Assembly (NCBI GenBank): GCA_945895375.1
Contig: CAMDEE010000005.1
Span: 1-64,000, forward strand
From: Auritidibacter sp. Marseille-P8566
Lineage (GTDB): Bacteria > Actinomycetota > Actinomycetes > Actinomycetales > Microbacteriaceae
Length of the DNA stretch: 64,000 bases
Direction of reading: 5' to 3'
Part shown: in pieces, positions 14,347 to 25,606 of the stretch
Position numbering within the stretch: the stretch's first letter is position 1
How the letters are laid out: each line of letters opens with the position of its first letter
The notes under the pieces: model-generated
Database searches by the model: none
The model's input: the letters and a program-made list of their open reading frames with translations, nothing else
Told to the model about the DNA's origin: nothing
Made by a program: the position numbers and the translations under genes

Positions 14347-15261
14347 ATGTTTGATAAACCTGCAAAGACGACAGATGAACTTGTCCAACTAATACACGAC
14401 AGGGGTTTCGTCGCAGACAAAGCGGGAAATGTTGAAGCTGCAATTAGGAGGGTAAATTACTATCGACTTAGTGCCTACATGAAGAGTTTTGAGCAGACAG
14501 ACAGTCACGAAGGTTCGAAAGTTGACAGAGTGCCGTTTCATGAGGTCATAGCGCTTTATGATTTTGATTTCGAGCTTCGAACGCTGGCTCAACGAAGTAT
14601 CCAGAAACTGGAAATTGCTCTACGCCGAAGCATAGCCACTCACCTTGCAGCGTCTTATGGAGCTTTCCCTCATCTTAACCCTGCAATTTTTGCTGAGCGG
14701 ACGACATGGGCTAAGACACATATAAAAATGCTCGAAGAGTACAGTCGAAGCACTGAACAATTCGCCACTCATCACCAACAGAAATATCCAGAGCTACAAC
14801 TACCGCCCATTTGGGTAATGGTGGAGCTCATTTCACTAGGAAGCCTTGTGCAACTCTATAAAAACCTCAAAGCTAGGCAAGATCGATTGCAAATAGCGAG
14901 AGACTTTGGCCTAGACGAAGCTGTTCTTGTTAGCTGGCTAGATCAGTTTGTTCAGGTGAGGAATATCTGTGCGCACCATGGAAGGCTTTGGAATCGACTT
15001 CTCCACAGGGCCGCCAAAGTGCCCAGCCACATTGCTCCGGCACACAAAAAGCTCCTCACTTTTGAGGGAAAAGGCTCAAAGAATGTCTTGAATGTATTCG
15101 TCATACTTGATTACTTAGAAGTGACGATGTTCCAAGAAAGCTCAGTAATTCGGGAGGTATGCCGCTTGTCGCGCGCATTGAATCAACATTCATCCCGTGT
15201 TTCATTTATCCGCAGGGAGAGGCTGCAAGTATTCGAGTCAATGGTTGAAAGTGGAGCTTAG
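14347..15261 (+). CDS. Abi family (AbiF/AbiD, Abi_2) HEPN abortive-infection protein
   Basis: A 304-aa all-helical protein of the Abi_2 family. The N-terminus has the family pattern DRGFVADKAGNVEAAIRRVNYYRLSAY (shown here at about 18-44 in parts), then YDFDFELR (about 71-78) and ALRRSIATHL (91-100). The C-terminal HEPN active site is R205-N-I-C-A-H210-H211, an RX4H ribonuclease motif, followed by GRLWNR. Family members halt growth of phage-infected cells, probably by RNA cleavage. GGGG near 14338 serves as ribosome-binding site. A structured RNA precedes it. Confidence 0.9.
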   Translation: MFDKPAKTTDELVQLIHDRGFVADKAGNVEAAIRRVNYYRLSAYMKSFEQTDSHEGSKVDRVPFHEVIALYDFDFELRTLAQRSIQKLEIALRRSIATHLAASYGAFPHLNPAIFAERTTWAKTHIKMLEEYSRSTEQFATHHQQKYPELQLPPIWVMVELISLGSLVQLYKNLKARQDRLQIARDFGLDEAVLVSWLDQFVQVRNICAHHGRLWNRLLHRAAKVPSHIAPAHKKLLTFEGKGSKNVLNVFVILDYLEVTMFQESSVIREVCRLSRALNQHSSRVSFIRRERLQVFESMVESGA

Positions 15262-18283: not shown

Positions 18284-18721
18284 ATGTCCGAAGAAAACAA
18301 CGCACCTCAAGAAGCCAGGCACTTACCTGTATTCAATCTAGGGACGCAAGAGCAACTGAACACAGATGCCGGCAAGGCTGATGCCAGCAGGTTCGAGGTT
18401 GAAAAGGTCAAAGTCAAATGTGCCTTCTTTTGGCCAGGACACAACTTCCATTGGATTCCATTGCTGCGATACAGCGAACCACGCATTCCTGTTCAAGCTA
18501 TCTGGCTTGAAGACGGGTCCTTCGAAGTAAAGGTCGAGGGAAGAACAGAGATCTGGTACCACCATGATTCAGCACGACTCAAAGATGCTCTAGCTAAATG
18601 TAGGCCGAGCGATGTCAAGGCAACTCAGGGCCGCTCTTGGTTGTTCATCAACCACGGCACAGGCTCCTATGCGTTCAACTGCGCTAAGAAACCGATTGAA
18701 GCCTGCCAAGGCAGGAACTAA
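18284..18721 (+). CDS. Hypothetical protein
   Basis: 145 aa, not recognised. The ATG at 18284 (MSEENNAPQ) follows AAAGGGG 7 bp upstream and is preferred over an extension to 18173 that would translate a hairpin-rich leader. The C-terminal two thirds is beta-rich with many aromatics (FFWPGHNFHWIPLL, SFEVKVEGRTEIWYHHD) and ends in a stretch with two Cys. It heads a run of three small genes; the next starts 28 bp downstream. Confidence 0.65.
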   Translation: MSEENNAPQEARHLPVFNLGTQEQLNTDAGKADASRFEVEKVKVKCAFFWPGHNFHWIPLLRYSEPRIPVQAIWLEDGSFEVKVEGRTEIWYHHDSARLKDALAKCRPSDVKATQGRSWLFINHGTGSYAFNCAKKPIEACQGRN

Positions 18722-18749
18722 CCAAACCGTCAAAAAAGAAAGAGCAAAC

Positions 18750-19256
18750 ATGTCAGAAGAAACTAAAAACTATTCATACTTGCCAGCAGAGACCAACCTC
18801 GAACAGAGGCTGCGAGATACCAAGGCAGAGCACGACAAAGCTAGCAGTGTCGTAGTTCACTGGGGAATTCAGAGTCGCCAGAACCGCATCAAAGCGCTGC
18901 TTGATGATCAGAAAGAGAATCTTCACTCGCTGATTTCTAGTAGAGCTTGTACCTGTGGACTAGAGCTAAAAGATGATGGAATGACAACCATCCTCGACCT
19001 AGTTCTTTCTAAGTACCACAGAAACCCGAAGACTCTAGAGCGAGACCTAGATCCTCGATTTAGGGGAATGGTGGAAAGAAGATTGTTCTCCATGGGAGGC
19101 CCAAATCCCATAGACGAGAAGTGGAACAACTTTGTCTTGAACTACTTAGGTAAAGAAATACAGAACAGAGTATTTGTTCCTTTAGTTTGGATGCCCCTAA
19201 GAGATATTCCTCACACTCTCTGGCACCAAAGACCAGTACCTCCTAAAGACCAGTAA
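18750..19256 (+). CDS. Hypothetical protein, paralogue of the next gene
   Basis: 168 aa from ATG 18750 (MSEETKNYSY), with GAAAGAG upstream. It belongs to no family I recognise, but shares with the following gene an ordered set of identities: LHSLI, then CTCGL (about residues 70-74), then HRN.KTLE, then P.FRGMV..R. The CTCGL pair of Cys and the following His could make a metal site. The N-terminal third is helical and charged. Head-to-tail arrangement with its paralogue suggests a local duplication. Confidence 0.65.
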   Translation: MSEETKNYSYLPAETNLEQRLRDTKAEHDKASSVVVHWGIQSRQNRIKALLDDQKENLHSLISSRACTCGLELKDDGMTTILDLVLSKYHRNPKTLERDLDPRFRGMVERRLFSMGGPNPIDEKWNNFVLNYLGKEIQNRVFVPLVWMPLRDIPHTLWHQRPVPPKDQ

Positions 19257-19276: not shown

Positions 19277-19702
19277 GTGTCAGTGCCTAAGTGGAGCTAT
19301 GTCAAAGAGTGGGAAAACCCTGAAGAGAAGATCAAGGCAATAGATAAGGAGTATGGGCGGATAACCTCTAGCCCAGTCTTCTTTGGCTACTGGGCTAAAG
19401 TAAGCCTCTTCCGAGTAGCCCTAAAGGACTTCGAGGAAGGCTTACATTCCCTAATCCAGGAGAACACATGTACCTGTGGCCTAAGGATCAACAAGTCAGA
19501 TAACTTCCTAGCCATCATCGAATCTAAACACCACAGAAACCATAAGACCCTAGAACCAGAACCTAACCCTAAGTTCAGAGGCCTAGTAGGTAAAAGAATA
19601 ACCATGCCCCTAATGCCTATGGATTGGCGGCATGAGGTTGATGTGTTGTGGGATCAGATAGCCGCTCAGTACAACGGAATACTGATTGGTTATCGGTCCT
19701 GA
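19277..19702 (+). CDS. Hypothetical protein, paralogue of the preceding gene
   Basis: 141 aa starting with GTG (SVPKWSYVKEW), with AGGAAG just upstream. It repeats the motif series LHSLI, CTCGL, HHRNHKTLE, PKFRGLVGKR of its upstream neighbour with the same spacing, while the ends have diverged. The conserved core of about 60 residues is presumably the functional domain. Codons CCT, CTA and AGA are frequent. Function unknown. Confidence 0.65.
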   Translation: MSVPKWSYVKEWENPEEKIKAIDKEYGRITSSPVFFGYWAKVSLFRVALKDFEEGLHSLIQENTCTCGLRINKSDNFLAIIESKHHRNHKTLEPEPNPKFRGLVGKRITMPLMPMDWRHEVDVLWDQIAAQYNGILIGYRS

Positions 19703-19703
19703 G

Positions 19704-20612
19704 CTAAACAGTTTCAAGGAATGACGCATATTGAATTTCAAGAAAACCTGGGTTTGGATAATCTGATTTAGCCTGCGGTAAATGCAGCGCCACCCCATGC
19801 ATTTCTTGGATGCCATGCTTTAGCATGGGCCCATCTATCTCTTTCAAGATTGGGGAGGAAACCTGAACTTTATAATCTGGGGTTATTCCGATTATCTTTT
19901 TATCGTAAGCAGCGTGATGAATTTTACAAAGAGCCAAACCGTTAGAGACTACTGGACGACCTAGCTCATGGCTGTCCGGGAGAATATGAGCGGCGTCAAG
20001 CAAGTTAGTGTGCTGCAGTCTACAAATTGCACATTGCTCTGAATAAGCCTTGATAACCCTGGACCTGAAAGCAGGTTGGTGCACTCTTCTCTTTGTTTGC
20101 TGAAGGGCGTATTTCTTTTGGATTTCTGAAACGGGGAAGGAATTTATGGACTCGTCAAATACTCGATCCGAGTCATCGGTGTTGCGAAAGTCTAGAACGA
20201 ATTTCTTAGTAACAACGTCATCACCTAAAACAATGACATTCACGTATGGCCAATAAAATCCTTTTGATGTCTCCAACAGATAGACAATCGGGGTATGTCT
20301 TTGGTGCGCCAATCTAAGTTTTGTGTTTCCGTAACCATCTCCAGTGGCTTGGTAGTCATAAAGAATCATGCCCTCTAATGTTTCATTATCTTCATACTTA
20401 CTATTCAAAGTGGACACAACGCTCAATGTTTCACTAAAGAGCTGTGGGTTATGAATGCCTTTGTATCTGTCTAAGAGTGGAATATGTTTACCTAGAAAGT
20501 GGTAATCATTCAGCAAGCTTTCTTTAGTAATGCCCGCATGCTGGTCCCGTGTCATTTCGAGCCAATGGAAGATATCCAGACGAATTAGCGCTTGCTCTTC
20601 TGTGGTGTACAT
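19704..20612 (-). CDS. HNH endonuclease (putative restriction enzyme)
   Basis: 302 aa. The C-terminal half carries an HNH_2-type nuclease: CAICRLQHTNLLDAAHILPDS (two-Cys pair and catalytic His), NGLALCKIHHAAYDKKIIGI (Asn and second His). The N-terminal half (about 1-160) contains a beta-rich module with GMILYDYQATGDGYGNTKL that resembles PUA/SRA-like DNA-reading domains fused to HNH in modification-dependent nucleases. That assignment is tentative. It lies immediately beside the restriction-modification locus, on the opposite strand, and its 3' end nearly touches the plus-strand small gene. Confidence 0.82.
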   Translation of the reverse strand: MYTTEEQALIRLDIFHWLEMTRDQHAGITKESLLNDYHFLGKHIPLLDRYKGIHNPQLFSETLSVVSTLNSKYEDNETLEGMILYDYQATGDGYGNTKLRLAHQRHTPIVYLLETSKGFYWPYVNVIVLGDDVVTKKFVLDFRNTDDSDRVFDESINSFPVSEIQKKYALQQTKRRVHQPAFRSRVIKAYSEQCAICRLQHTNLLDAAHILPDSHELGRPVVSNGLALCKIHHAAYDKKIIGITPDYKVQVSSPILKEIDGPMLKHGIQEMHGVALHLPQAKSDYPNPGFLEIQYASFLETV

Positions 20613-20973: not shown

Positions 20974-22038
20974 ATGCCTGTTTTGCGCTTCCCAAATTCA
21001 CAATCTGATTTAGACAGATTAGTGAGACAAATGACTCTAGTCGCAGAGAAATTTCCAAATGCTTCAGACTCTTTCTCTTTGGATGACATCAGGGACGTGC
21101 TCGCAAGTCAAAGTCAAATTTCTAGCAGCGGAGCGTCAGGTGCTCTTGCTGTGTCGAGATCTACGAGAGAAGATCGCTCAAGAGATCCTCTTTACAATCA
21201 AGTTAAAATGATGTCCGAAATTTACCGTATGTTCGGCTGGATGCGCAGCACTACAGGAAATCGCCTGGACTTTAGGATGACTCATTTAGGTCTAACGATA
21301 GCTCTTGATTCTTCAAGCATGGGAATAGAATGTCGTAACGGCTTGATTCGTGAGTCGATTCTCGGTGTGGTGTTCCCCAACGAAACGACGACAAACGTAG
21401 GGGTGTTCAATCAAAGGCCCTTCTCCTGGCTTCTTCGCCTCTCTAGAAAACTAGACGGATTTATTACTCGCGACGAAATCATCGTGGGCTTACTTGGTAC
21501 GATCGATGACTTGGTACCCGGGGAAATAGAATCCGTTACAACTAGATTGGAATCGGCTAGAAAAAGAGGAAACACTGCCGCCCTAGTGGAGCAGCTAGCC
21601 AACACGAACAAGATTCAAGTCAACACACTTCAGAATTACACTCGATTACCAATTGGGATTTTGAGCTCCGAGCTAACTGGTTGGGCATCCCCTTCGACAA
21701 GAAATTTTGAGGGATTCAAATCTCCAGTCCGCGGCTTCGAGCTAACTGCCTACGGAAAGGCGGTAACTGATGACCTAGAAAACAGCTTTGACCTCAGGCT
21801 TGCCGGCGTTCGTTCGCTGTCGGATGATGAAAGGGCACTTCTGGCAGACTTCGCTTTCTACAGTATGTTGGAAAATGCCGGAGTGCCAAATGAAGTAATT
21901 AAAGATGACATAGAGAGATTACGTTTTGGAGGGCACAGGATATTGACGGCTCTCGGATTCACAACAGGCCAAAAACTGCTCTTCAGTCCTGAGCTGCAGG
22001 AAACAGATTTAATTTTGGCTAAATTGGGTGAGGAATAA
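20974..22038 (+). CDS. Putative DNA-recognition subunit of a restriction system
   Basis: 354 aa, not assigned to a named family with certainty. Sequence such as MMSEIYRMFGWMRSTTGN.LDFRMTHLG (about 79-107) and RPFSWLLRLSRKLDGFITRDEIIVGLLG (about 139-166) has the pattern of winged-helix recognition domains in type IIS enzymes (AlwI-like). I see no PD-(D/E)XK site in it. It is followed 3 bp later by a nuclease gene with a TTG start, so the three plus-strand genes form one operon. Role as target-recognition component is inferred from context. Confidence 0.6.
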   Translation: MPVLRFPNSQSDLDRLVRQMTLVAEKFPNASDSFSLDDIRDVLASQSQISSSGASGALAVSRSTREDRSRDPLYNQVKMMSEIYRMFGWMRSTTGNRLDFRMTHLGLTIALDSSSMGIECRNGLIRESILGVVFPNETTTNVGVFNQRPFSWLLRLSRKLDGFITRDEIIVGLLGTIDDLVPGEIESVTTRLESARKRGNTAALVEQLANTNKIQVNTLQNYTRLPIGILSSELTGWASPSTRNFEGFKSPVRGFELTAYGKAVTDDLENSFDLRLAGVRSLSDDERALLADFAFYSMLENAGVPNEVIKDDIERLRFGGHRILTALGFTTGQKLLFSPELQETDLILAKLGEE

Positions 22039-22041
22039 GAA

Positions 22042-22971
22042 TTGCGAAGGGTTCAGCACAAAAACAATTCTCAGGTGATTCAAATATTCCCAACTGTTAG
22101 CAAAGTGCGCCGCAATATCGGCAACTTCCGAGGGTTGCTTCTTGATGATGCAGGAACAATCGTGGCCGAGTCAAAATGCATAAGCTGTGTTACCACGCCT
22201 TGCATGAAGCAAGATCTAGGAAACAGGATTGTCGAATCATGTCCAGTGCAAGCAATCGCGATTAATCCGAACACAGGAAAGATTCAGATAAGTGAAGATT
22301 GCATCTCTTGTGGCTTATGCGCATTGCGTTGCCCGGTCGGAGCTATCGAATGGACGGCTGATAAACCGGCTCTTGTGCATTCTGATCATGACATTTCTAA
22401 CATGTCTGTCGTTAAGCCTGACATTCAAATGGATTGGTTGTCAAATCTGCGGCATAGCCAGACGGCTTCTCTCGATTCAATCCAAGAGGTTGCGAGAATC
22501 ATTACAGATAACTTAAAACGCGAGAAGGCGTCAGTGATATATCCGCTAGTCGCAAGTTATCTTCAAGTCCTTGGGTTTTCTGCGACCGCATCCAACATGG
22601 GTGACACTAGCTCACGTGCTGACGTAACAATCAAAACTGCTCAGGGAACCGTTCCAATTGAAGTAAAATCTTACACGGAAGTGGAGTTCATTAATTTGAA
22701 GTCAGTGCAACAAGCATTCGAGAACAAGTTACTGACTGCCCGCCAGGATCAGGTTAGCAAGTTGAACACTTTGTCCTCTTTAGCAATTGCTTTCAGCTAT
22801 CCAAGTGACAGGTCAAGGCTAGACCAACTAATTGAGGATGTGGATGGGGCCTTCGGTATACGAATAGGAATTATTTCTCTACCGAGACTCCTTGAAACTG
22901 TTATTGGTGTGTCATGCGGAAAGCTTGATTTCGACAAAAATAGCATCCTTGGCCTAAAGGGGCTGTTTTGA
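22042..22971 (+). CDS. 2[4Fe-4S] ferredoxin domain fused to PD-(D/E)XK restriction nuclease
   Basis: 309 aa. Residues 40-105 form a bacterial-type ferredoxin with eight Cys in two sets: C46, C49, C54, C67-Pro and C87, C90, C93, C97-Pro (the second is classic CxxCxxCxxxCP). Residues about 140-290 look like a restriction nuclease: helix IYPLVASYLQVLGF (166-179), then Asp194 in RADVTI, a 12-residue gap and E207-V-K209, i.e. D-x12-ExK, then a QQAF helix. TTG start with GAGGAA upstream. Overlaps the next gene by 4 bases. Two methyltransferases lie on the opposite strand. This fusion is not one I know from described restriction enzymes. Confidence 0.75.
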   Translation: MRRVQHKNNSQVIQIFPTVSKVRRNIGNFRGLLLDDAGTIVAESKCISCVTTPCMKQDLGNRIVESCPVQAIAINPNTGKIQISEDCISCGLCALRCPVGAIEWTADKPALVHSDHDISNMSVVKPDIQMDWLSNLRHSQTASLDSIQEVARIITDNLKREKASVIYPLVASYLQVLGFSATASNMGDTSSRADVTIKTAQGTVPIEVKSYTEVEFINLKSVQQAFENKLLTARQDQVSKLNTLSSLAIAFSYPSDRSRLDQLIEDVDGAFGIRIGIISLPRLLETVIGVSCGKLDFDKNSILGLKGLF

Positions 22972-23984
22972 AGAGGCCAAAAATTACTCCGCAGCAAACC
23001 AGGATGATCAGACCTTTAGGTGGACTTCCGACGGAATCCTTGAATGTCATTGATGTCGCTGGCTCACCGAATGCCAGTGCATGTTGGAGATGCTCAGACA
23101 CCCCTTGCCAGGCACTGGGGCGAGAACAGTTAGTGGTTCCCAACTTGCAAGAAATCGGCAGCATTTTGTCCAAGGATTCAATCTGCCCTGTCGATGCTCT
23201 ACAAGTCGGAGAAGATGGTGACATTCAAATCGACGCTGCGAGCTGCATTGGATGCGGGCTCTGCCTAATCAATTGTCCAGTTGGAGCTATCTACCTCGAG
23301 TCGAGCACAGGCGTTGCAAAAGTTGTTGTTCAGAGCCAAATCGGGCAACAATCAGACTCGGGTATTTTTGAACTGAGAAAACAATGGGCCAAATCCCTCA
23401 ATTACAAGATGCCAACCAACGATCAGATAATAATGCAATTGGACAAGATTCAAAAGAAGCTGTTCGAGGCGAAAACACCTAGCACTAACTTAAATGTAAG
23501 ACTTTTAGTGCGAAATTCCTTTATCTCACTGGGAGCGAAGACTGCGCTCCGTGCGCAAGGCGCTAATTCTCTTCTCTCAGAAATAGTGGGCGAAGAACAC
23601 GGACGAGTGTTTTTGGTGGAAGTAGAAACTAATGATGATACTTTGGACGCATTCCGCAGATTAATTTCCTCGGCGGCCAGGGCGATTAACTCTCTTGAAG
23701 TAGATCGCGAGAAACTGCATTTGGTCATGGTGGTCCCACAACTTCCCAATAAGCGCGTGGATTTCTATCGTCTTGCAAAGGACGCCAGATTGTTTCTCGG
23801 CTTGCGTGTCATTGTGTTGCCTATCTCAGCACTAGTAGCGGCGATTATTTTGCGAAGAAAAAACTTCTACGAGACTTTTAAGGACTTTACGCCAGAAGAA
23901 GGCAATGAGTCTTTGAGCGAGGTAGCAGAAATAGCTTTCGGGTTTAGGTTTGACGAAAGCTCAGGACTCAGCCCTTCAAAATAG
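22968..23984 (+). CDS. Second ferredoxin-nuclease-like protein with altered active site
   Basis: 338 aa and a diverged paralogue of the preceding protein. The ferredoxin part has C39, C42, C47, C73-Pro and C93, C96, C99, C103-Pro. The C-terminal domain aligns by pattern, but where the neighbour has D194, E207, K209 this one has E205, E218, E220 (E-x12-ExE), so catalysis may be lost or altered. Later LVMVVPQ and LRVIVLPISAL strands match the neighbour's LAIAFSYP and IRIGIISLPRL. TTG start at 22968, coupled to the previous stop. Probably forms a heterodimer with it. Its 3' end overlaps the convergent methyltransferase by 17 bp. Confidence 0.7.
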   Translation: MKRPKITPQQTRMIRPLGGLPTESLNVIDVAGSPNASACWRCSDTPCQALGREQLVVPNLQEIGSILSKDSICPVDALQVGEDGDIQIDAASCIGCGLCLINCPVGAIYLESSTGVAKVVVQSQIGQQSDSGIFELRKQWAKSLNYKMPTNDQIIMQLDKIQKKLFEAKTPSTNLNVRLLVRNSFISLGAKTALRAQGANSLLSEIVGEEHGRVFLVEVETNDDTLDAFRRLISSAARAINSLEVDREKLHLVMVVPQLPNKRVDFYRLAKDARLFLGLRVIVLPISALVAAIILRRKNFYETFKDFTPEEGNESLSEVAEIAFGFRFDESSGLSPSK

Positions 23985-24747
23985 CAAGATCCTTCAAGGC
24001 GTCATTTACGCGCTTGTTTCCGAGTTCAACATACTCAGGATTTAGCTCGCAGGCCAAGAAAAAGCGTTCGTTAATAGACGCCGCCACGCATTCAGAGCCA
24101 CTTCCAGCAAAGGGCACTAGGACAGTTGCCCCTATTTCTGAGAAGTGCTTTATCAGTCTTTCGCTAATTGACATAGGCTTTTGCGTTGGATGGTTTACCT
24201 TTTCTCCTGCAAATCTTTTACCTGCCAGCGTTGGAAAACTCCACACATCCCCCGCAATTCGCCCATTTGGATTTGGAATCCATTCTTTTCCGTTTTTGAT
24301 AATTTTATTCCTTAGCCGCTCTGTGCTTTTATAAGGTTCCCTAATTTCTTCAAAGTAGTAGTCGTTTGTCTTGGAAAACCAAAGTAGCGGCTCATAGTGT
24401 GTCGCCATGTTTCGCTTGTATGTAGAAAACCCATTCTCATAATGCCAAATCACTTGTCGTCTATAGTGCATTCCCATCTTGTAAAGCTCTACTTGGATAA
24501 AGCACAAGTAATGATGGATTCCGTAAACAAATAGATTTCCATCTGGCCTTAGCACTCTTTGGCACTCTTGGAGCCATTCAGCGCACCAAGGTAACCACTC
24601 ATTGTCGTTGATCCATTCCTTGTGGTTACCAAATTTAGGCCCTAAATTATAAGGTGGGTCCGCAATAATCAATTGAACGGAATTATCAGGAACTAACCTT
24701 AGGTAATCTAAAACGTCTGACTGGGCTATGTGATTAAGATTCAACAT
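23968..24747 (-). CDS. DNA amino-methyltransferase, beta class (DPPY then FxGxG)
   Basis: 259 aa. Catalytic motif IV is DPPYNLG (30-36) near the N-terminus, and the AdoMet-binding motif I FAGSGSE (213-219) is near the C-terminus, the beta-class order used by N6-adenine and N4-cytosine enzymes. NHPTQKP precedes motif I, as usual. The ATG at 24747 lies inside the end of the upstream methyltransferase gene (14-bp overlap). It converges on the Fe-S nuclease genes and is the likely protective partner for one strand of an asymmetric site. Confidence 0.9.
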   Translation of the reverse strand: MLNLNHIAQSDVLDYLRLVPDNSVQLIIADPPYNLGPKFGNHKEWINDNEWLPWCAEWLQECQRVLRPDGNLFVYGIHHYLCFIQVELYKMGMHYRRQVIWHYENGFSTYKRNMATHYEPLLWFSKTNDYYFEEIREPYKSTERLRNKIIKNGKEWIPNPNGRIAGDVWSFPTLAGKRFAGEKVNHPTQKPMSISERLIKHFSEIGATVLVPFAGSGSECVAASINERFFLACELNPEYVELGNKRVNDALKDLAILKG

Positions 24748-25606
24748 TTTCGGCTAGCTTCTTGTTGTTCTGTAGAATGAGAATGTACTGATGATGAATG
24801 TTCGGAACGTACGAAGTCGGATAGCCATATGGAAAAATCCGTTTGTGCGTTTGATGCAAAATTGTGATGCCCTTAAGAATCCACGCCTCATCTTCCATTA
24901 GTCGGGCTATGTCGGAATGAAACATCCGTAGTCTAGGGCCTTCGCGGAAATCGCTCACCACGATAGCTGCATGTTTCTTGTGTTTAAGAACTCTTTGGCA
25001 ATCCCTAATAATAGACATTAGGGCATCAAGAAACGCCTCATAATCATCTATGTTTCCTAGATCTAGAGAATCATCTTGTGAATATCGAGTAGCCAGACCT
25101 TTGCTCTCGCGTTCTTGTTTCGCTTTGTGATCTTTCTTGTGAAGGATGTTCCAGTAGGGAGGGCTTGTCACAATCAAATCAACACTATTTTCGTCCAACG
25201 TTTGCAGAATGTTCCGTGAGTCACCTTGTAAAACAGTCTGGTTGGTTGAACCAAGTAGGTCTTCATCTATTTCCTTTTCAAGTCGCTCAGTGGAAAGTCG
25301 TGCAAACTCTTCGCTTAGCTCAATTCCAATACCGTTGCGACCTTCAGTGGCCGCAGCCTTTAAAGTTGATCCAATTCCCAAGAATGGGTCCAGGACTGTG
25401 TCGCCGGGCTTGGAGAAAAACCTCACAAGCCGCGCAACATCTGTATAAGAATATGGTGCAGGATGCAAACGCTCGAAATAAGTGTCGGGATGATTCGCCC
25501 CTAAACCTTTTTGCCTCCAGACGCTAATTGTTTCCTGTATCCATTCCTTCGCTGTCAAGGCGTTTAAAGTATTTCTTGGGCTCACTTGAGCCTTCTCGTC
25601 GTCCAA
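24734..25606 (-). CDS. DNA amino-methyltransferase, FxGxG then TSPPYW order
   Basis: 290 aa. Motif I DPFLGIGST (73-81) comes first, then GIELSEEF, then catalytic TSPPYW (147-152), which is typical of N4-cytosine or N6-adenine enzymes. An HP.PYSYTD segment (48-56) precedes motif I. The start is TTG at 25606 with AAAGGATG upstream. The motif order differs from the downstream partner, so the two are not a recent duplication. They probably modify the two strands of a non-palindromic target. Confidence 0.88.
   Translation of the reverse strand: MDDEKAQVSPRNTLNALTAKEWIQETISVWRQKGLGANHPDTYFERLHPAPYSYTDVARLVRFFSKPGDTVLDPFLGIGSTLKAAATEGRNGIGIELSEEFARLSTERLEKEIDEDLLGSTNQTVLQGDSRNILQTLDENSVDLIVTSPPYWNILHKKDHKAKQERESKGLATRYSQDDSLDLGNIDDYEAFLDALMSIIRDCQRVLKHKKHAAIVVSDFREGPRLRMFHSDIARLMEDEAWILKGITILHQTHKRIFPYGYPTSYVPNIHHQYILILQNNKKLAENVES

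What the first reader, a model, noticed from the sequence alone, without database searches (positions are those of the whole stretch)
20974..25606. Restriction-modification locus built on ferredoxin-fused nucleases
Seen: two adjacent genes encode an N-terminal 2[4Fe-4S] ferredoxin module (eight Cys each, CxxCxxCxxxCP) fused to a PD-(D/E)XK-like C-terminal domain. A putative recognition protein precedes them in one operon, and two amino-methyltransferases converge from the other strand. Known: nuclease domains can carry a structural Fe-S site (Cas4, AddB), but a full two-cluster ferredoxin fused to a type II-like nuclease is not one I know. Inference: an Fe-S-dependent, possibly redox-sensitive restriction system.
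Basis: partly seen in the sequence, partly recalled or inferred. Interest (0 to 1): 0.88.

Follow-up and report, generated by a model that had tools for sequence, protein, structure and literature searches.

The report
Restriction enzyme carrying ferredoxin domains
This looks like a bacterial DNA-cutting defence system of the BspD6I type whose cutting subunits carry an iron-sulfur ferredoxin module; relatives with the same module turn up in several bacterial phyla, and why a restriction enzyme should need it is not known.

Summary
P2 and P3 each carry an eight-cysteine 2[4Fe-4S]-type domain in front of a PD-(D/E)XK-type domain, beside a recognition protein (P1) and two convergent DNA methyltransferases. 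A predicted model of P2 places its C-terminal half next to the FokI cleavage domain and both BspD6I subunits. P1 matches the BspD6I recognition domain. So this is a BspD6I-like (type IIS/IIT) restriction system.

Of the 80 best genome loci found through its methyltransferase, 41 carry the same nuclease family with the ferredoxin domain, in 10 named phyla. Usually these are R1 (recognition plus D..ExK nuclease) and R2 (ferredoxin plus D..ExE nuclease). All eight cysteines are invariant in 33 of 33 aligned ferredoxin-bearing proteins. Four of the 80 loci have an R2 without ferredoxin.

The window is an odd member. R1 is split in frame by one TAA into P1 and P2, P2 has a ferredoxin too, and P3's catalytic Asp is Glu.

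The R1 and R2 proteins that I scanned match no named family beyond generic ferredoxin profiles and weak hits, and the rows my literature searches listed show no ferredoxin-bearing restriction enzyme. Cluster content, cleavage and redox control are untested. Verdict: new variant of a known kind.

The parts
20974..22038 (+). P1, 354 aa: sequence-recognition protein (corresponds to the N-terminal part of an R1-type subunit)
   Evidence: ORF; AlphaFold pLDDT 91.5, pTM 0.90; VIA Z 16.3 (rmsd 2.9, 229 residues) to BspD6I large subunit 2ewf, 11.8 to BpuJI recognition domain, 11.1 to FokI, next unrelated row 8.9
22036..22044 (+). Single in-frame TAA (22036-22038) and TTG start of P2 (22042-22044); P1 and P2 share one 666-aa frame; SD-like GGTGAGGAA at 22027-22035
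   Evidence: the SD reading is mine, by eye
22042..22971 (+). P2, 309 aa: ferredoxin domain plus R1-type (D..ExK) nuclease
22177..22332 (+). P2 eight-cysteine segment (residues 46-97)
   Evidence: Pfam Fer4; cysteine positions; model residues 11-141 match the ferredoxin subunit of WOR5, Z 6.5, a middling score
22465..22968 (+). P2 PD-(D/E)XK nuclease domain (residues 142-309); Asp194, Glu207, Lys209
   Evidence: VIA Z 12.6 (rmsd 3.8, 156 residues) FokI 399-577, 11.4 (3.6, 149) BspD6I small subunit 2p14, 11.1 (4.3, 163) BspD6I large subunit 6qnz; residues
22968..23984 (+). P3, 338 aa: ferredoxin domain plus R2-type nuclease-like domain; TTG start overlaps the P2 stop
23082..23276 (+). P3 eight-cysteine segment (residues 39-103)
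23580..23627 (+). P3 active-site stretch: Glu205 (Asp in 37 of 39 aligned rows), Glu218, Glu220
23968..24747 (-). M2, 259 aa: amino-methyltransferase, DPPYN type, convergent with and overlapping P3 by 17 bp
   Evidence: PF01555 154.1 bits; 42-55% identical to M2 of three relatives
24734..25606 (-). M1, 290 aa: amino-methyltransferase, TSPPYW type
   Evidence: PF01555 98.8 bits; relatives up to 63% identical

Best explanation
A BspD6I-like type IIS/IIT restriction-modification system. Shown by sequence or prediction: P1 has the recognition-domain fold of BspD6I; P2 carries an intact D..ExK nuclease of the R1 (large-subunit) kind; P3 is the homologue of R2 (small subunit); M1 and M2 are paired amino-methyltransferases of the kind that such asymmetric systems carry. 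Inferred: P1 binds an asymmetric site; P2 (held to P1 non-covalently, or joined by rare read-through) nicks one strand beside it; P3 docks and cuts, or in this divergent copy only helps to cut, the other strand; M1 and M2 protect one strand each. The ferredoxin domain is most likely a cluster-bound folding and docking module that seats the nuclease domain in the complex, so that cleavage needs an intact Fe-S protein. Whether electrons ever move through it is open.
For: Recognition fold: P1 Z 16.3 to BspD6I. Nuclease fold: P2 Z 12.6 FokI, 11.4 and 11.1 to the two BspD6I subunits. Family: 41 of 80 genome loci carry ferredoxin-bearing members beside M1 (34 R1+Fd-R2, 3 with R1 in pieces plus Fd-R2, 2 single-chain recognition-Fd-nuclease, 2 cut by the contig end), in 10 named phyla. 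Starting from R1 instead: 9 of 11 viral-contig loci have M1+M2; in the other 2 (L275, L281) the contig ends just behind R1 or R2 and the flank held has none; 7 Fd-R2, 3 Fd-less R2, 1 not seen. Five of those 11 contigs were already in the M1 scan, two of them near-copies; of the 6 new ones 4 have M1+M2 and 2 are those cut ones. Eight cysteines invariant in 33 of 33 Fd-bearing rows. R1 D, E and K each in 35 of 35 rows that have the nuclease. Domain position: the Fd lies in front of a nuclease domain in R2, in the single-chain form and in P2. Known small-subunit behaviour: BspD6I's small subunit is active only with the catalytically active large subunit (PMC6261011, passages).
Against: No cleavage, binding, methylation or metal data. 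Fd-less R2 homologues (4 of 80 genome loci; 3 of 11 viral) show that this kind of enzyme can do without the domain. Eighteen of the 80 loci pair similar methyltransferases with another R family and in 14 I recognised no R, so the methyltransferase pair is not a marker of the ferredoxin nuclease alone. P3 has Glu for the catalytic Asp, and P1|P2 is interrupted by a stop, so the window's own copy may be weak or decaying. L199 has only a remnant of the Fd and of R1. No P3 model was made and no complex was modelled; the five P2 models ranged from mean pLDDT 88.7 down to 74.5.
Confidence: 0.72

Rival explanations
1. Redox or iron gate: the 2[4Fe-4S] domain is a sensor. Oxidation or loss of the clusters releases or disables the R2 nuclease, so the enzyme falls back to nicking (R1 only) or goes silent, and restriction follows the redox or iron state of the cell.
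For: Full two-cluster module with all eight ligands kept in 33 of 33 rows, more than one structural cluster would need (inference); in the two-subunit forms it sits on R2, the subunit that would turn a nick into a break; of the seven Fd-less rows in the tree the one not firmly in the Fd-less clade is from Weissella, a lactic acid bacterium (that such bacteria are poor in Fe-S proteins is recalled).
Against: No redox partner is known; I did not search the neighbourhoods for one. The family lives both in Clostridia and Bacteroidales and in Idiomarina, Polynucleobacter and Brevibacterium (that the first are mostly anaerobes and the last aerobes is recalled), so no single oxygen regime goes with it. 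In human DNA2 redox control of DNA binding did not depend on the Fe-S cluster (abstract, PMC7311471).
Confidence: 0.25
2. The window copy is a decaying or nickase-only system: the TAA splits R1 and P3 has lost its catalytic Asp, so it protects by methylation and nicks at most.
For: In-frame TAA between P1 and P2; Glu at P3 205 where 37 of 39 rows have Asp; L150, another split system, also has a degenerate R2 (Glu..Glu-x-Gln), L143's contig-cut R2 has ExA, and the three single-chain loci show no R2.
Against: An SD-like GGTGAGGAA stands 6 nt before the P2 start and an AAAGGGG 5 nt before P3, all three frames are otherwise open, D..ExK is intact in P2, all 16 Fd cysteines are kept, and P2 begins much like an R2 protein (by eye), which fits a natural split better than a fresh nonsense mutation.
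Confidence: 0.3
3. The eight cysteines bind zinc or nothing and the domain is a purely structural relic.
For: A zinc ion replaces the Fe-S cluster in a relative of AddB/Cas4 (abstract and passages, PMC3466216).
Against: Pfam Fer4 above cut-off in both proteins; second motif canonical CxxCxxCxxxCP; all eight cysteines kept in 33 of 33 aligned rows.
Confidence: 0.07

Closest known systems
R.BspD6I (Nt.BspD6I large subunit + ss.BspD6I small subunit)
   Same: Recognition-domain fold (P1, Z 16.3); nuclease fold shared with both subunits (P2); a large recognising and nicking subunit plus a small second one, as in R1 and R2 (PMC6261011, passages).
   Different: No iron is mentioned for BspD6I (0 hits for 'iron' and 'cysteine' in PMC6261011). 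The R1 profile finds no BspD6I sequence in the PDB. In the window the large subunit is split and both nuclease chains carry the ferredoxin.
FokI
   Same: Cleavage-domain fold, best structural match of P2 (Z 12.6); recognition part also matches P1 (Z 11.1).
   Different: FokI is one chain without ferredoxin (recalled); the single-chain relatives L149, L159 and L212 are the nearest analogue but have the ferredoxin between recognition and nuclease parts.
BtsI / BsrDI heterodimeric type IIS enzymes
   Same: Large recognition subunit that nicks one strand, small subunit for the other, two methyltransferases (PMC2909958, PMC4081073, passages).
   Different: In BtsIB the PD-EXK motif is near the N-terminus (P57, D58, E72); here the nuclease follows the recognition domain. 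'Ferredoxin' has 0 hits in both papers.
Cas4, AddB, DNA2 (Fe-S nucleases)
   Same: Nucleases that need an Fe-S cluster for stability or DNA binding (PMC3466216 passages, PMC7311471 abstract).
   Different: In Cas4/AddB one cluster is held by four cysteines around the nuclease fold; here a separate two-cluster-type ferredoxin domain precedes the nuclease.

Membership tests
BspD6I-like type IIS/IIT restriction endonuclease | Recognition domain of the BspD6I/FokI kind | tested here: met
   P1 model, Z 16.3 to 2ewf, well above the unrelated rows at 8.9
BspD6I-like type IIS/IIT restriction endonuclease | C-terminal PD-(D/E)XK nuclease on the recognition subunit | tested here: inconclusive
   Met in relatives (two-subunit R1 open frames mostly 556-597 aa); in the window the two parts are separate ORFs in one frame
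BspD6I-like type IIS/IIT restriction endonuclease | Second, smaller subunit with its own nuclease active site | tested here: inconclusive
   R2 rows: Asp in 37 of 39 rows and third-position Glu in 37 of 39 (rows include P2 and P3); window P3 has E..ExE
BspD6I-like type IIS/IIT restriction endonuclease | Two methyltransferases, one per strand | tested here: met
   M1 and M2 present; both in 9 of 11 R1 loci, contig ends in the other 2. That each acts on one strand was not tested
BspD6I-like type IIS/IIT restriction endonuclease | Cuts outside an asymmetric site | not testable with these tools
   Needs cleavage assay and methylome
BtsI/BsrDI type | PD-EXK motif in the N-terminal part of the large subunit | tested here: not met
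   In R1 the D..ExK columns lie behind the recognition part; BtsIB motif at 57-72
2[4Fe-4S] ferredoxin domain | Two four-cysteine motifs and Fer4 profile match | tested here: met
   first motif has CxxCx4C spacing, unlike the classical CxxCxxC (recalled)
2[4Fe-4S] ferredoxin domain | Binds two [4Fe-4S] clusters | not testable with these tools
   No metal data
Cas4/AddB Fe-S nuclease | Four cysteines flanking the nuclease fold | tested here: not met
   Eight cysteines lie in a separate stretch before the nuclease

The most novel reading that the evidence does not exclude
A widespread class of restriction enzymes whose second-strand cut is gated by a two-cluster ferredoxin, so that the cell's redox or iron state decides whether foreign DNA is nicked or broken. 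It would be the first Fe-S-controlled restriction-modification family that I know of (recalled; searches).
Probability: 0.22. Interest if true: 0.92.

Novelty: new variant of a known kind. Interest (0 to 1): 0.74.

Why it matters
Restriction enzymes are textbook Mg-dependent nucleases. A family seen in ten named phyla that keeps all eight cluster ligands in the rows aligned would mean that part of bacterial DNA defence depends on Fe-S assembly and may respond to oxygen, iron or reactive species. Fd-bearing, Fd-less, two-subunit and single-chain members beside similar methyltransferases form a ready natural experiment on what Fe-S clusters do in DNA enzymes, a question described as debated (PMC3466216, passages). 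The R1 and R2 proteins scanned have no family of their own in Pfam, NCBIfam or PADLOC, so annotation and defence finders built on those are likely to miss them.

Tried and rejected
Single-sequence searches with the window proteins led nowhere: P2 in genome contigs and viral contigs, P1 in viral contigs, P2 in plasmids and phages, P1 and the P2 nuclease part in plasmids, M1 alone in viral contigs. P2 in 299 family genomes matched in 97; besides itself and P3 every listed match lies in the ferredoxin part (query residues 11-121), and the one I opened (L003) reads as a stand-alone ferredoxin. P1 in 394 class genomes gave one other hit, E 0.005, whose locus reads by eye as a CBS-type membrane protein, taken as chance. 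The R1 profile found no PDB sequence below E 0.2. Four R1 proteins of relatives found no PADLOC or NCBIfam family and only two stray Pfam hits (E 0.024 and 0.046); one Fd-less R2 found none in all three; one Fd-R2 (L167), scanned in PADLOC only, and P3 hit BrxP weakly, and the single-chain L212 hit PtuB at E 0.00015 next to generic Fer4 profiles. Three R1 proteins were not found in plasmids (two) or phage records (one). The R1 profile found only the window among 396 phylum genomes and 4 of 391 in the class of L167's genome, one of them that genome itself and one apparently the same contig as L164. BtsI-type membership rejected on domain order.

Rows left out: the cysteine count (33 of 33) leaves out the seven shorter-R2 loci (L163, L165, L170, L171, L179, L183, L185; each has the eight-cysteine pattern), contig-cut or partial R2 (L128, L143, L180, L199), the three single-chain proteins and near-copies (L122, L202). 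The tree carries warnings for long branches, including the window row. Coordinates of the models were not available, so cluster-to-active-site distances were not measured.
Full report
What is in the window. Pfam Fer4 passes its cut-off in P2 and P3, and both M proteins match N6_N4_Mtase. Each Fd segment has eight cysteines; the first motif is CxxCx4C followed after 12 or 25 residues by CP, the second the classical CxxCxxCxxxCP. The pattern is rare: 2 of 249 window ORFs (P2 and P3), and 0 of 2668 ORFs in 32 control loci. P1 and P2 share one reading frame, parted by a single TAA and one codon. An SD-like GGTGAGGAA stands before P2's TTG and AAAGGGG before P3's, whose start overlaps the P2 stop (by eye); this reads as coupled translation of three pieces, though a split by mutation cannot be excluded.

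Finding the family. Searches with the window's nuclease and recognition proteins failed. The methyltransferase M1 opened the way: an alignment of M1 with a Haloferax relative found closer viral-contig loci, and two of these, near-identical contigs (L041, L042; M1 63% identical), have M1, M2, a ferredoxin protein and a 579-aa P1-like protein with a nuclease tail in the same layout. Classified by profile and by the cysteine pattern: R1+Fd-R2 34; R1 in pieces plus Fd-R2 3 (L124, which has two transposase-like ORFs between its pieces; L150; L185); single-chain recognition-Fd-nuclease 2; R2 cut by contig end with the second cluster seen 2; R1+R2 without Fd 4; partial R2 2; R1 only 1; another R family of about 415 aa 18; no R recognised 14. 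So 41 of 80 are ferredoxin-bearing. Their phyla: Bacillota 15, Bacteroidota 9, Pseudomonadota 5, Chloroflexota 3, Actinomycetota 2, one each of Verrucomicrobiota, Poribacteria, Melainabacteria, Fibrobacterota and Spirochaetota, two unnamed.

Test from the other side. An R1 profile in viral contigs gave 11 loci; 9 have M1+M2; in the other 2 (L275, L281) the contig ends just behind R1 or R2 and the flank held, about 5 and 8 kb upstream, has no methyltransferase; 7 have Fd-R2, 3 Fd-less R2, 1 not seen. Five of the 11 contigs were already known from the M1 scan, two being near-copies of each other; of the 6 new ones 4 have M1+M2. In 396 genomes of the window's phylum only the window has it, and M1 occurs in 2 of 60 genomes of its genus, the window's own and one 36% identical with a stop inside. 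In the groups sampled it is thus a rare, scattered accessory system.

What the parts are. The P2 model (63 rows, pLDDT 88.7, pTM 0.86, the other four models down to 74.5) has a PD-(D/E)XK fold at 142-309: VIA Z 12.6 to FokI, 11.4 to the BspD6I small subunit, 11.1 to the BspD6I large subunit, with other nucleases from 9.7 down; its N-terminal part matches the ferredoxin subunit of WOR5 at Z 6.5, a middling score. The P1 model (36 rows, pLDDT 91.5, pTM 0.90) matches the BspD6I recognition part at Z 16.3 over 229 residues, BpuJI 11.8, FokI 11.1, next unrelated 8.9. R1 relatives keep D, E and K in 35 of 35 rows; in the R2 alignment D stands in 37 of 39 rows including P2, and the third residue is E in 37 of 39, K in P2 and Q in one. 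Window P2 has D..ExK and so is the R1 nuclease; P3 has E..ExE and is the R2 homologue. L150, also split, has a degenerate R2 (E..ExQ), L143's contig-cut R2 has ExA, and the three single-chain loci show no R2. On the R1 tree the window groups with L150 and the single-chain rows (95, with long-branch warnings); the Fd-less rows need one change on the tree, six of the seven at support 100, the set with L142 (Weissella) at 28 only. With the midpoint root the Fd-less rows lie inside Fd-bearing ones, so loss is simpler than repeated gain, but the root is not proven.

How it probably works. Known from print: BspD6I's large subunit nicks, and its small subunit is active only with a catalytically active large subunit (PMC6261011, passages); type IIT enzymes are in general accompanied by two methyltransferases, one per strand (PMC4081073, passages). 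Inferred for the window: P1 recognises, P2 nicks, P3 joins for the second strand, M1 and M2 protect. The ferredoxin domain is inferred to fold and dock the nuclease in the complex; strict eight-ligand retention in 33 of 33 rows leaves room for a redox role. In human DNA2 the Fe-S cluster is needed for activity while redox control is independent of it (abstract, PMC7311471), which is why I rank the structural role first.

Novelty. Four R1 proteins of relatives gave no PADLOC or NCBIfam match and no convincing Pfam match, and the R1 profile no PDB sequence; P2 and P3, one Fd-R2 (PADLOC only) and one single-chain form gave generic ferredoxin profiles and weak PADLOC hits (PDC-S01, BrxP, PtuB), and one Fd-less R2 none. 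The rows listed by paper searches (open-licence PMC only, listings not read through) showed no ferredoxin-bearing restriction enzyme by title or abstract start; 'ferredoxin' and Fe-S terms have 0 hits in the 2014 type II review and a 2025 R-M review. REBASE could not be queried. I call it a new variant of a known kind.

Noticed in passing
19704-20612 (-): HNH protein related to phosphorothioated-DNA restriction endonucleases (NF045808, E 1.8e-21, below its cut-off), divergent from P1.
   Followed up: no
14347-15261 (+): AbiD-like abortive-infection protein (PADLOC E 1.5e-57); with the HNH gene and this locus it looks like a defence island.
   Followed up: no
18612-19256 and 19277-19702 (+): Two neighbouring small ORFs with similar HSLI..CTCGL stretches (by eye), perhaps paralogues, no family sought.
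   Followed up: no
22036-22041: P1 and P2 lie in one 666-aa frame with a single TAA between them.
   Followed up: partly
L127 10652-11950 (-), L156 10632-11873 (+) and 16 other loci: A second, about 415-aa R family pairs with the same methyltransferase pair; L156's copy matches PDDEXK_9 weakly (E 0.0004).
   Followed up: partly
L163, L165, L170, L171, L179, L183, L185: Loci with shorter Fd-R2 proteins (253-298 aa) and D..ExD in place of D..ExE (7 of 7); five of them were put in the tree and form one clade. Bacteroidota, Fibrobacter, Treponema, Robinsoniella.
   Followed up: partly
L124 12592-13730: In Idiomarina loihiensis the R1 gene is interrupted by two transposase-like ORFs (IS3-like by eye).
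   Followed up: no
   Followed up: no
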